Positions 61,161 through 64,000 of a stretch of DNA of 64,000 nucleotides are shown here, one piece after another. The position numbers were made by a program, and so were the translations under genes. The stretch spans positions 124,001-188,000 of the forward strand of contig JAJEFD010000009.1 of the NCBI GenBank assembly GCA_022820645.1. The letters are read 5' to 3'. Source of the DNA: Dehalococcoidia bacterium (GTDB lineage Bacteria > Chloroflexota > Dehalococcoidia > Lucifugimonadales > Australimonadaceae). The first letter of the stretch is position 1, and each line of letters begins with the position of its first letter. Under the pieces are notes generated by a model. That model was not told the DNA's origin. It did no database searches and saw only the letters and a list, made by a program, of their open reading frames with translations.

Positions 61161-61203
61161 GGGAGATTAGTGTAACGGGCGCAGCCGCCCCCGGCCAACC
61201 TCA

Positions 61204-61384
61204 TCGAAACATCTCGGCCATCCGTGTCCTGGGTTGTCCTTCCCGCGCCTCTCCGTCATTCCAGCGGAGGCTGGAATCCAGGAGGCGGCGTGGCGTGGTG
61301 AGGGCTGTCATGTTGAGCGCAGCCGCAGGCGGATTCGAAACATCTCTCGGGCATCCGTGTCCTGGGTTGTCCTTCCCGCGCCTC
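61204..61384. repeat. ~50-bp direct repeats with an intervening REP-like palindrome
   Basis: TCGAAACATCTC(TCG)G-CATCCGTGTCCTGGGTTGTCCTTCCCGCGCCTC at 61204-61251 and 61335-61384; ATTCCAGC-ggag-GCTGGAAT in 61258-61277. Confidence 0.85.
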
Positions 61385-61538
61385 CTCTACCAAACCCCCG
61401 CTCAGGCGTGAACCCCCCGGCTTCGCCCCCAAAATTGTGCGCCAAAGTGCGCCATTGTGGGCCATTCCACTCCTGCGACCCCGACCTCCGCACCGGGGCA
61501 GGCCCCCGACGCTGTCCGCGGGGCGGAGCGCCGTCACC

Positions 61539-61588
61539 GACCAGCGTACGCGCCCCTGCCGCGACGGCGAAAGGGGCGCGTGTCGCAG
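61539..61588 (-). repeat. Dispersed ~55-bp element, copy D (oriented towards accC)
   Basis: RC: CTGCGACACGCGCCCCTTTCGCCGTCGCGGCAGGGGCGCGTACGCTGGTC. Confidence 0.65.
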
Positions 61589-61650
61589 CCTCCGTCATTC
61601 CCGCGCAGGCGGAAATCCAGAGGTGCCATGACCGGGGCTATGGCTCGCCA

Positions 61651-62499
61651 TCAACCCTTGAAGACGTGTTCTCTATGGTAGCGAAGGAACTCTCTACTTG
61701 GCTCGAACTTCTGCGGGAGGGCGATCTGAAGGCCGTCGTAGACCCCTATCGACTTTACGAAGAAATCGTCATCACCCTGCAGGTGTTCGCTGGAGACACG
61801 GACAGTCATATCGTCGGTTACGGTTATGATTCCGGAATCGAACGCTTTATCGTGTAATGCGGACAGGAGTAGGCCATTCCGGGGATTGACTCGGTTGGCC
61901 TTATCGTGGCTCCACGGAATGATGTGGCTCGCTATCAGTAGACTGGGGTTCGACAGGCCGGTGATGCAGCAGCGCCCGGTGTAGGAACTCAGCACAGTCC
62001 TTCGGAAGAACCTCTGCCCGACGCGTGTCGTTGCTTCTACCGGCCTGTCTTCCCCTAGGCGGCTCTCCTCCGGTTGATCGTCGGGTGCTTCTTCTGCCAA
62101 GCCAATCTCGCTTACAGCCTGATCTGATTGAATGGCGAACTGGTCCCAGTCGTTTTGCATCTCTGCCCACACTAGGCGTTCCACAGAAGAAGTGTTTCGT
62201 AGGCCGCTGCGACCGGTAGAGGTAATCTTGGGATCAAGGCTGGCGATGTTCACCAGCTTCATGGCGAGCGCTGATGGAGATCTCCCCATCGCCTGCGCAA
62301 ACCGAATGATTACCGGGTTGCTAGCGTGAAGCCTCCCGAAGGGCAACTGGCAGTACAAGTTGAGTGCGACCAGTAGTTCGCTCCGTGTCCATTTACGGTT
62401 GGTGACCATGTCGACCCGCTTTCGCCTTTTGCTATTGCTTTGTAGGTCTATGTCAATGACCCGAAGATCGTCCATGTTGGCATAGTCATGCTCAATCAA
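61651..62499 (-). CDS. HNH endonuclease (HNH_2-like)
   Basis: 'GRCCITGLSNPSLLIASHIIPWSHDKANRVNPRNGLLLSALHDKAFDSG'; N-terminal 'WTRSELLVALNLYCQLPFGRLHASNPVIIRFAQAMGRSPSALAMKLVNIASLDP'. Confidence 0.85.
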   Translation of the reverse strand: MIEHDYANMDDLRVIDIDLQSNSKRRKRVDMVTNRKWTRSELLVALNLYCQLPFGRLHASNPVIIRFAQAMGRSPSALAMKLVNIASLDPKITSTGRSGLRNTSSVERLVWAEMQNDWDQFAIQSDQAVSEIGLAEEAPDDQPEESRLGEDRPVEATTRVGQRFFRRTVLSSYTGRCCITGLSNPSLLIASHIIPWSHDKANRVNPRNGLLLSALHDKAFDSGIITVTDDMTVRVSSEHLQGDDDFFVKSIGVYDGLQIALPQKFEPSREFLRYHREHVFKG

Positions 62500-63994
62500 C
62501 CTGTGCTTTGATTCTTTCGCGCAATTCTTGGAGCTGTGGATGAAGAGGAGCTACGGATCGCATCACCCTCCTCAGACACTCTCGTGATTCTATACCAGTC
62601 AATTGCTCTAGGCGATGGCCGAGGTTGTGATAGTCGATTTCCGAGCGAATGGACTCGATTAGGGTATCTGCTTCTCCTATCGAACAGCCGAATTGAGTGG
62701 CAAGTTGGGCGTGATAATCGGGGAGGAGCAGTTGTTCCATGACCCATTGCTCAGGTGGCAATGCACCTGGCAGAATGATATACTCTGGATGTAAGCTTTC
62801 ATCAGAAGGAGCTTCTTTCGCTATTGCCTTCTTAATGTCCGATTCAGAACAATCGCCGTCCAGTACGCACATGGCTCTCATTGTATACCCTGAACGCAGA
62901 TGGGAAACACCTTGACGGACCACAGTCTCATTGCTGCCTACTTCTCTAACGTCCGTGCGATTTCTAAGGCCATAGGGAAGAGCTTCCTCAATTAATGCCT
63001 TCGCGCTGAAGTCTTCACAATACAATACCAGTTCTGGCTTAAAGACACCACTCATTTCGTGGATTGCGAACCGCGTACTAGGTGATTCTATTGCTTCGTG
63101 GTTGTCGCCTTGTCTACTAAGCAGGATTCTCGCTTGCCGTGGCAATGCGTCAAGAAATGCCTCCGAGTGTGTTGAGCAGACTATCTGTGTCTTTCGCTTC
63201 AGACAGACTTCAACGAGAATCTCGGCTAACCGAACCTGGGCTTCAGGATGCAAGCCAGCTTCAATCTCTTCTATCAGTAGAAGGCTTGAAGTTGGCAGTT
63301 CCTGTAGTGTGTGAAGGAGATTGATAATCCAACTCTCGCCACTACCCATGTTGAAGCCTGTGAATTCAACTCCCGAGCGAGCTCTCTGAAGAGCATGGCG
63401 CTTGATTTCTTGGATTTCAGCCGAACTGTAGATTCTACCCATAATGTAAGACAATTGCTGGGTCGATGTTGATGTTAATGAAGAAGAGTAGGTACCGATC
63501 TGTTGGTTGGCGAATGCGCTCCGAACACCTGCTATCTCATGGGCAGGGATTAGACGCCTAAGAGGACTGAAAGCCACTTCTCGTTCGGGCCGTGCAGTGT
63601 ATCTTCCCCACCGGGTAGGAGTCTTCCTAAATTTGACCGAAGGAGTTGGCCTGGAGTGCCTATATGTCCAAGTTACCGAAACACCATCAAAGGACTGCTC
63701 ACTGGAAGCCCGAAGAAAGAAATCTTCGAATGTATAATAGGACCTATCAGCGGCTTTGGACTTTGGCTGGTGTAGCCAGTTTGGAATACGCCAGCCTGCC
63801 GGCGAGTGATATGCCAGTGCTGCTAGAGCTAGAATCGTGCTCTTCCCTACACCATTCTTTCCGCACAACGCAGTGACTGGATACCGAAAGGGTACGTAAA
63901 GGCCATGTATACCTCGCAAGCCACCACTAATGGCGATACTCTCGAGATATGGCCTGTGGATGTCATCTGTGGGATTATCCCAAAGATGTTGCAA
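62492..63994 (-). CDS. OLD-like ABC ATPase with C-terminal TOPRIM domain, possibly truncated by window end
   Basis: Walker A 'CGKNGVGKSTIL', signature-like 'MGSGESWII', Walker B 'SLLLIEEIEAGLHPEAQ', H-loop 'VCSTHSEAF', TOPRIM-like 'LVLYCEDFSAKALIEEAL' and 'AMCVLDGD'. TTG at 63994; the frame stays open to the edge. Confidence 0.82.
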   Translation of the reverse strand: MQHLWDNPTDDIHRPYLESIAISGGLRGIHGLYVPFRYPVTALCGKNGVGKSTILALAALAYHSPAGWRIPNWLHQPKSKAADRSYYTFEDFFLRASSEQSFDGVSVTWTYRHSRPTPSVKFRKTPTRWGRYTARPEREVAFSPLRRLIPAHEIAGVRSAFANQQIGTYSSSLTSTSTQQLSYIMGRIYSSAEIQEIKRHALQRARSGVEFTGFNMGSGESWIINLLHTLQELPTSSLLLIEEIEAGLHPEAQVRLAEILVEVCLKRKTQIVCSTHSEAFLDALPRQARILLSRQGDNHEAIESPSTRFAIHEMSGVFKPELVLYCEDFSAKALIEEALPYGLRNRTDVREVGSNETVVRQGVSHLRSGYTMRAMCVLDGDCSESDIKKAIAKEAPSDESLHPEYIILPGALPPEQWVMEQLLLPDYHAQLATQFGCSIGEADTLIESIRSEIDYHNLGHRLEQLTGIESRECLRRVMRSVAPLHPQLQELRERIKAQVD

Positions 63995-64000
63995 TGCTCT

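What the first reader, a model, noticed from the sequence alone, without database searches (positions are those of the whole stretch)
61651..63994. ABC ATPase-TOPRIM plus HNH nuclease two-gene module: candidate anti-phage system mixing Septu-like and OLD-like parts
Seen: an SMC/OLD-type ATPase (GKNGVGKST, IEEIEAGLHP, STHSEAF) with TOPRIM-like motifs (CEDFSAK, VLDGD) overlaps by 8 bp an HNH gene (CITGL..LIASHIIPWSHDKANRVNPRNGLLLSALHDKAF). Both lie in a locally low-GC segment next to repeats. Known: Septu pairs an ATPase (PtuA) with an HNH nuclease (PtuB); Gabija and OLD proteins are ATPase-TOPRIM; PARIS separates ATPase and TOPRIM. Inference: an ATPase-TOPRIM co-translated with an HNH nuclease would carry two nuclease activities and may be an undescribed or rare variant.
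Basis: partly seen in the sequence, partly recalled or inferred. Interest (0 to 1): 0.77.

Follow-up and report, generated by a model that had tools for sequence, protein, structure and literature searches.

The report
Methylase-guided defence operon with ATPase-nuclease
The two genes are the tail of a five-gene bacterial defence operon that joins a DNA-marking enzyme, its repair partner and a cutting enzyme with a helicase-nuclease and an ATP-driven nuclease; related DNA-marker plus ATP-driven-nuclease pairs turn up in many phage genomes integrated in bacteria, including E. coli, where the idea can be tested.

Summary
The ATPase-TOPRIM gene starts 30 bp outside the window. The operon continues for three more genes on the same strand: Vsr, a C5 cytosine methyltransferase (Dcm) and a UvrD helicase with a PD-(D/E)XK nuclease, then ATPase-TOPRIM, then HNH. 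Adjacent genes overlap (the HNH start is uncertain). The island has lower GC (0.49-0.55) than its flanks (0.68-0.70), and two sister-genus genomes lack its ATPase.

TOPRIM is supported: E339, D340 and D391 are invariant in 79/79 relatives and D393 in 78/79, and the AF2 model has TOPRIM secondary structure. The ATPase belongs to the HEC-04/IbfA (OLD-like) family, not Septu or GajA. The HNH is a recurrent, usually stand-alone restriction-type endonuclease, sometimes beside Dcm or Vsr.

ATPase plus this HNH is not co-conserved. The functional set is: prophage locus L230 has ATPase-TOPRIM, Dcm, UvrD-PDDEXK, Vsr and an unrelated HNH. A sister branch of the ATPase lies within 400 bp of a Dcm in 54 of 60 viral/prophage loci, one found in 32 of 5,426 E. 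coli genomes.

Best reading: a composite restriction-modification operon whose ATPase-TOPRIM is an ATP-gated effector. Verdict: new variant of a known kind.

The parts
61651..62499 (-). HNH_2 endonuclease gene, last gene of the operon; 282 aa from TTG 62499, probably 252 aa from ATG 62409. HNH core about 61840-61974.
   Evidence: Pfam HNH_2 E 1.6e-14; PADLOC HNH PDLC04132 E 2e-116; catalytic H192, N208, H216 and C177/C178 invariant in 10 homologues, family start near residue 31
62492..64000 (-). HEC-04/OLD-like ATPase-TOPRIM gene; continues 30 bp beyond the window (start C19:188030 = window 64030; 512 aa). Gene 4 of 5.
   Evidence: PADLOC HEC-04 173 bits over residues 14-463; Pfam AAA_21; AF2 mean pLDDT 84, Foldseek best hit OLD 6p74
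63836..63862 (-). Walker A (GKNGVGKST, residues 57-65 of the full protein)
   Evidence: G57, N59, G62, K63 invariant in 79 of 79 relatives
63011..63016 (-). TOPRIM motif 1 acidic residues E339-D340 (CEDFSAK)
   Evidence: invariant in 79/79 relatives; E-D also invariant in the 11 Dcm-linked ATPases
62852..62860 (-). TOPRIM DxD motif (D391-G-D393)
   Evidence: D391 79/79, D393 78/79; DGD invariant in the Dcm-linked branch; lies after the third strand of the domain in the model
61161..61650 (.). High-GC intergenic left boundary of the island, with short dispersed repeats (e.g. 61592-61620, with an inverted 93% copy on the other side of the operon at L002:7970-7998)
   Evidence: blastn of the gap against the contig

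Best explanation
This is a five-gene defence operon, read Vsr > Dcm > UvrD/PD-(D/E)XK helicase-nuclease > OLD/HEC-04-like ATPase-TOPRIM > HNH_2 endonuclease. It works like a composite restriction-modification system. Proposed mechanism: (1) Dcm methylates a cytosine motif in host DNA as the self mark. (2) Vsr repairs the T:G mismatches that 5-methylcytosine deamination leaves. (3) HNH cuts incoming DNA that lacks the mark. (4) The helicase-nuclease enters at the ends and unwinds or degrades the DNA, as AdnAB/RecB-type enzymes do. (5) The ATPase-TOPRIM is an ATP-gated effector nuclease, active on unmarked or damaged DNA, or a back-up that fires when restriction is blocked. Shown: gene content, overlap, intact catalytic motifs, recurrence of Dcm+ATPase-TOPRIM and of Dcm+helicase in unrelated loci. 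Inferred: all activities, the division of labour in steps 3-5 and the defence function.
For: One strand, tightly packed: Vsr/Dcm overlap 50 bp (11 bp from the second Met), Dcm/helicase 4 bp, helicase/ATPase 23 bp; a 10/12 promoter-like match sits about 60 nt before Vsr. Domains: Vsr E 5e-26, C5 methylase E 6e-57, UvrD E 2e-56 plus PDDEXK_1 E 6e-20. Helicase Walker motifs, nuclease D837/D859/K861/Q881 and four cysteines are invariant across 8 homologues. Recurrence: L230 carries ATPase-TOPRIM, Dcm, UvrD-PDDEXK, Vsr and an HNH of another family; L233 carries ATPase-TOPRIM, Dcm, Vsr and UvrD-PDDEXK. 54 of 60 members of the Dcm-linked ATPase branch have a Dcm within 400 bp. Dcm then helicase recurs in G440, L234, L239; helicase, Vsr and Dcm in G021. 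HNH of this family lies beside Dcm and/or Vsr in L180, L183, L184, L224, L227, L126 and L137.
Against: No second copy of this exact gene set with this HNH was found. The window ATPase is a long branch (28% to its nearest relative) that groups weakly with solitary HEC-04-like proteins, not inside the Dcm-linked clade, so its link to Dcm may be a separate event. HEC-04 acts alone in E. coli according to PMC12111858, so the ATPase could be an independent passenger. Most HNH relatives are orphans without a nearby Dcm. No activity, methylation or phage data exist here.
Confidence: 0.6

Rival explanations
1. Two independent systems stacked in one transcript: a Dcm/Vsr/HNH type II restriction-modification set, with a solitary HEC-04/IbfA-type ATPase-TOPRIM (abortive infection) and a helicase gene inserted between methylase and nuclease as passengers.
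For: 80 ATPase relatives in public genomes show none of the partner genes beside them (one has a Vsr 4 kb away). HEC-04 was defined as an embedded single-gene system with its own anti-phage activity (PMC12111858). The window ATPase falls with solitary ones in the tree.
Against: Genes overlap by 4-23 bp around the insert. A sister branch of the ATPase is tied to Dcm in 54 of 60 loci. L230 and L233 hold the same functional set in other orders.
Confidence: 0.25
2. A Gabija-like pair (UvrD helicase + ATPase-TOPRIM) embedded in an R-M operon: the two proteins form a GajA/GajB-type complex, and Dcm/Vsr/HNH is the surrounding R-M.
For: The helicase matches GajB models (192 bits) and lies directly upstream of an ATPase-TOPRIM with a 23-bp overlap. 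Both parts also co-occur in L230 and L233.
Against: GajA models match only about 55 residues around Walker B (44 bits, against 173 for HEC-04). The helicase is 1015 aa with an extra PD-(D/E)XK domain and pairs with Dcm or type III mod/res without any ATPase-TOPRIM in most loci. Gene order is the reverse of gajA-gajB as I recall it.
Confidence: 0.1
3. A Septu-like ATPase + HNH effector pair.
For: Gene adjacency; Foldseek finds PtuA among the hits.
Against: PtuA 31 bits against a cut-off of 500; no PtuB match at E<=1; this HNH family is found beside Dcm/Vsr or alone; the pair is not co-conserved.
Confidence: 0.03

Closest known systems
HEC-04 / IbfA (PADLOC PDLC04149)
   Same: ABC ATPase fused to a C-terminal TOPRIM, about 500 aa; best profile for the window protein and for the Dcm-linked branch. 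Reported active against T4 and T5 (PMC12111858).
   Different: HEC-04/IbfA is described as a single gene; here it is gene 4 of a five-gene operon with Dcm, Vsr, helicase-nuclease and HNH. Identity to its nearest relative is only 28%.
MORC/paraMORC restriction-modification operons (Iyer et al. 2008, PMC2292703)
   Same: Dcm + Vsr + endonuclease (HNH in some) + an ATPase gene + often a helicase. Locus L224 here is Dcm > GHKL ATPase > HNH of the window's own family, with Vsr.
   Different: The ATPase slot holds an OLD-type ABC ATPase-TOPRIM instead of a GHKL ATPase, and the helicase is an SF1 UvrD/PD-(D/E)XK protein, not SF2.
Gabija (GajA/GajB)
   Same: ATPase-TOPRIM encoded next to a UvrD-type helicase.
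   Different: Not in the GajA family by profile; helicase twice as long with its own nuclease; methylase, Vsr and HNH present.
TOPRIM-OLD and HNH-OLD back-up effectors embedded in BREX (PMC12839542)
   Same: OLD-ABC TOPRIM and HNH nucleases placed inside methylation-based operons as auxiliary or back-up effectors; [quoted passage not shown]
   Different: The host here is a Dcm/Vsr R-M operon without any BREX core gene (PglZ, BrxC, etc.).
Septu (PtuA/PtuB)
   Same: ABC-type ATPase gene followed by an HNH gene.
   Different: Neither protein belongs to the Ptu families; the operon has three further genes.
AdnAB / AddB type helicase-nucleases
   Same: UvrD-like motor with C-terminal PD-(D/E)XK nuclease and cysteines typical of an Fe-S nuclease; PDB matches to a UvrD/REP helicase chain of 6ppu and to AddA.
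   Different: Here it is linked to DNA methylases rather than being housekeeping.

Membership tests
HEC-04 / IbfA | Sequence match to the family profile over most of its length | tested here: met
   173 bits, residues 14-463 of 512, E 1.8e-51
HEC-04 / IbfA | ATPase and TOPRIM catalytic residues intact | tested here: met
   Walker A/B, E339, D340, D391 in 79/79, D393 in 78/79
HEC-04 / IbfA | Single-gene system | tested here: not met
   Embedded between overlapping genes of a five-gene operon
HEC-04 / IbfA | Anti-phage activity | not testable with these tools
   needs phage challenge
Gabija | First gene belongs to GajA | tested here: not met
   44 bits over about 55 residues only, against 173 bits for HEC-04; GajA complex 8sm3 only rank 31 by fold
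Gabija | UvrD-type helicase partner (GajB) | tested here: inconclusive
   GajB models 192 bits, but 1015 aa with a PDDEXK_1 domain
Septu | PtuA ATPase | tested here: not met
   NCBIfam PtuA 30.9 bits against cut-off 500
Septu | PtuB HNH nuclease | tested here: not met
   no PtuB model at E<=1; HNH matches PDLC04132
Type II restriction-modification with Vsr | C5 cytosine methyltransferase with catalytic motifs | tested here: met
   PF00145 E 5.9e-57; PCQ, ENV and QRR motifs conserved
Type II restriction-modification with Vsr | Vsr mismatch endonuclease linked to the methylase | tested here: met
   PF03852 E 5e-26, overlapping Dcm
Type II restriction-modification with Vsr | Restriction enzyme of the same specificity, blocked by the methylation | not testable with these tools
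   HNH_2 is the candidate; specificity needs biochemistry
MORC/paraMORC R-M operons | GHKL (MORC or paraMORC) ATPase gene | tested here: not met
   No GHKL gene among the five; it is present in L224 with the same HNH family
OLD-family nucleases by context class (alone; + UvrD; + retron) | TOPRIM-OLD architecture | tested here: met
   Foldseek top hit TsOLD 6p74 E 8e-13, although TM-score is only 0.33; motifs conserved
OLD-family nucleases by context class (alone; + UvrD; + retron) | Falls into a listed context class | tested here: inconclusive
   Next to a UvrD helicase but not GajB-like, and with Dcm, which no class in PMC10568477 has

The most novel reading that the evidence does not exclude
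Dcm plus OLD/HEC-04-like ATPase-TOPRIM is an unrecognised restriction-modification architecture: the OLD-family ATPase-TOPRIM is itself the restriction (or suicide) component, with C5-cytosine methylation as the self signal. It is spread mainly as a two-gene prophage cassette (E. coli example: 'ATP-dependent nuclease' WP_000107696.1 + 'DNA cytosine methyltransferase' WP_000721512.1). The window operon is an elaborated version with Vsr, helicase-nuclease and HNH added, assembled with a different ATPase branch.
Probability: 0.35. Interest if true: 0.75.

Novelty: new variant of a known kind. Interest (0 to 1): 0.55.

Why it matters
How OLD-family ATPase-TOPRIM nucleases tell self from foreign DNA is an open question; for Gabija a 2025 preprint (PMC12407980, abstract) calls it unknown. 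A family that keeps a cytosine methylase next to the nuclease in 54 of 60 loci offers a direct answer to test: methylation as the self mark. The E. coli prophage copy makes it a simple laboratory experiment. It would also show that the ATPase slot of Dcm/Vsr/HNH restriction operons can be filled either by GHKL (MORC-like) or by OLD-type ATPases.

Tried and rejected
Septu membership: rejected by profiles and by the lack of co-conservation. GajA membership: rejected by profile. A two-gene ATPase+HNH unit: rejected. A clean empty-site comparison in the sister genome G446 failed: the left flank matches up to window 61203 (different sequence follows) and the right flank is on another contig; absence of ATPase and helicase matches in G446 rests. 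AF2 of the HNH without an alignment gave pLDDT 39 and was not used. HNH scans of IMG/VR gave nothing. Plasmid and phage collections held no close relative of the helicase or of the Dcm-linked ATPase. The Foldseek TM-scores are low (0.27-0.41), so the OLD assignment rests mainly on sequence motifs and secondary structure. The paper by Krishnan et al. 2020 on ABC ATPases, which may describe related operons (recalled from memory), is not held, so novelty of the Dcm+OLD pair could not be checked against it.

Full report
OBSERVATION. The two reverse-strand ORFs are present. Pfam gives AAA_21 for the first (E 1e-18) and HNH_2 for the second (E 1.6e-14). The window is C19:124001-188000 of a 2.75-Mb, 19-contig genome. 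The ATPase frame is open at the window edge. With the neighbouring DNA it is 512 aa, starting at an ATG at C19:188030. The HNH homologues begin near residue 31 of the ORF as listed, so the HNH probably starts at ATG 62409, 82 nt after the ATPase stop; the 8-bp overlap depends on a TTG with no evident ribosome-binding site.

THE REAL UNIT. Upstream of the ATPase, on the same strand and outside the window, lie three more genes. They are a UvrD helicase with C-terminal PDDEXK_1 nuclease (1015 aa, L002:3009-6056 = C19:188008-191055), a C5 cytosine methyltransferase (365 aa, L002:6053-7150) and Vsr (136 aa, L002:7101-7511). Overlaps are 23 bp (helicase/ATPase), 4 bp (Dcm/helicase) and 50 bp (Vsr/Dcm; 11 bp if Dcm starts at its second Met). 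A promoter-like site (10 of 12 matches) lies about 60 nt before Vsr; a consensus match is weak evidence. The genes have GC 0.49-0.55 against 0.68-0.70 in the adjacent flanks. The island sits between a biotin carboxylase gene (named from its sequence) and an HbpS/RidA-type gene. The ATPase has no match in 12 other genomes of the family, two of them of the same genus; in one of these two the helicase is also absent.

IS THE TOPRIM REAL? Yes, as far as sequence and modelling go. In an alignment of the window protein with 78 relatives from public genomes and viral contigs, the Walker motifs, E339, D340 and D391 are invariant and D393 is conserved in 78 of 79. The AF2 model on 75 sequences has mean pLDDT 84. 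Residues 324-409 of the model read strand-helix-strand-helix-strand-helix-strand, with E-D after the first strand and DxD after the third, which is the TOPRIM layout. Foldseek's best hit is a full-length OLD nuclease (6p74, E 8e-13), followed by PtuA and retron ATPases, but TM-scores are low, so fold alone would not prove it. The best PADLOC model is HEC-04 (173 bits); GajA, PtuA and AriA match only the ATPase core.

CO-CONSERVATION. Of 80 genome loci with relatives of the ATPase (25-31% identity), none shows the HNH, the helicase or the methylase near it, and one has a Vsr 4 kb away (not all loci have long flanks on both sides, and distant HNH families would be missed by this search). Of about 43 full-length homologues of the HNH (8 found in a 251-genome sample of the window's phylum, 33 in a 336-genome sample of the phylum of G512, plus Neisseria gonorrhoeae and Hymenobacter), none has this kind of ATPase beside it. 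Seven or eight have a Dcm and/or a Vsr, and L224 has Dcm > GHKL ATPase > HNH with Vsr, which is the paraMORC-type R-M of Iyer et al. 2008.

WHAT DOES RECUR. (a) Helicase + R-M genes: Dcm/Vsr in G021, G440 and G042; type III mod/res in G007, in the Blastomonas plasmid and in many viral contigs; NOV_C GHKL genes in others. (b) The functional set itself: viral-contig locus L230 has ATPase-TOPRIM > Dcm > UvrD-PDDEXK > Vsr > HNH (PF01844, another HNH family), and L233 has ATPase-TOPRIM, Dcm, Vsr and UvrD-PDDEXK in a divergent arrangement. Both neighbourhoods hold phage structural genes. (c) Dcm + ATPase-TOPRIM: 13 of the 80 best Dcm loci in IMG/VR have such an ATPase next door. Searching with 11 of these ATPases gave 60 full-length relatives, of which 54 have a Dcm within 400 bp and 59 have one within about 5 kb (some are near-duplicates). 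L433-L435 also carry an HNH gene. One member is present at >=99% identity in 32 of 5,426 complete E. coli genomes, annotated 'ATP-dependent nuclease' and 'DNA cytosine methyltransferase', in a lambdoid prophage beside racR/ydaS-type genes. These ATPases also score best against HEC-04 (100-108 bits for the two tested) and match no NCBIfam equivalog at its cut-off.

PHYLOGENY. The Dcm-linked ATPases form one clade. The window ATPase is a long branch that joins two solitary relatives (SH-aLRT 92, flagged as a meeting of long branches), outside that clade. If right, OLD-type ATPase-TOPRIM genes have been joined to Dcm at least twice, which argues for a functional link; but the tree does not settle it.

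MECHANISM. Shown: gene content, order, overlap, intact catalytic residues, recurrence. Inferred: Dcm marks self; Vsr limits deamination damage; HNH is the restriction nuclease; the helicase-nuclease processes ends; the ATPase-TOPRIM is an ATP-gated nuclease acting on unmarked or processed DNA, or a back-up suicide effector of the kind proposed for TOPRIM-OLD genes embedded in BREX (PMC12839542). In the two-gene prophage version no other nuclease gene is evident in the loci inspected, so there the ATPase-TOPRIM itself is the likely restriction or suicide component.

COMPARISON WITH THE KNOWN. HEC-04/IbfA by protein family (PMC12111858); paraMORC-type R-M by operon plan (PMC2292703); Gabija by the helicase + ATPase-TOPRIM theme, but not by family. 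The OLD review consulted lists OLD proteins alone, with a UvrD helicase and in retrons, none with a methylase (PMC10568477). [quoted passage not shown]

VERDICT. A real defence-type operon, misread as a two-gene Septu/OLD hybrid because the window cut it. The most valuable outcome is the recurrent Dcm + OLD-type ATPase-TOPRIM association, which is directly testable in E. coli.

Noticed in passing
L459 (E. coli FORC 064, NZ_CP022664.1:2649031-2651924): Prophage-borne pair 'ATP-dependent nuclease' (WP_000107696.1) + 'DNA cytosine methyltransferase' (WP_000721512.1), found in 32 of 5,426 complete E. coli genomes at >=99% identity; a tractable model of the Dcm + OLD-TOPRIM pair.
   Followed up: partly
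L386-L445: 54 of 60 relatives of the Dcm-linked ATPase-TOPRIM have a C5 methylase within 400 bp, in both orientations; in the loci inspected often next to a phage repressor or integrase.
   Followed up: partly
L229, L236-L238, L240, L241, L244, L245, L257, L260; L009, L134: UvrD-PDDEXK helicase-nuclease genes sit directly beside type III-like mod/res genes, sometimes with a NOV_C GHKL gene: a recurrent accessory of restriction systems.
   Followed up: partly
L433-L435: HNH gene (329 aa; weak match to the IscB profile's HNH region) > predicted membrane protein > ATPase-TOPRIM, with convergent Dcm.
   Followed up: no
L128, L132, L133: HNH of the window's family as an orphan gene beside the same neighbours (aspartate carbamoyltransferase, a Clp-type AAA gene) in several genomes of one family: a stable chromosomal position with no methylase nearby.
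   Followed up: no
L138 (Hymenobacter plasmid): HNH of the window's family faces a UvrD-helicase gene without PDDEXK_1.
   Followed up: no
window 61161-61650 and L002:7512-8020: Short palindromic, dispersed repeats (core TTCCCGCCTGCGCGGGAATGACGG) on both sides of the operon in inverted orientation, with further copies along the contig; possible insertion or recombination sites.
   Followed up: partly
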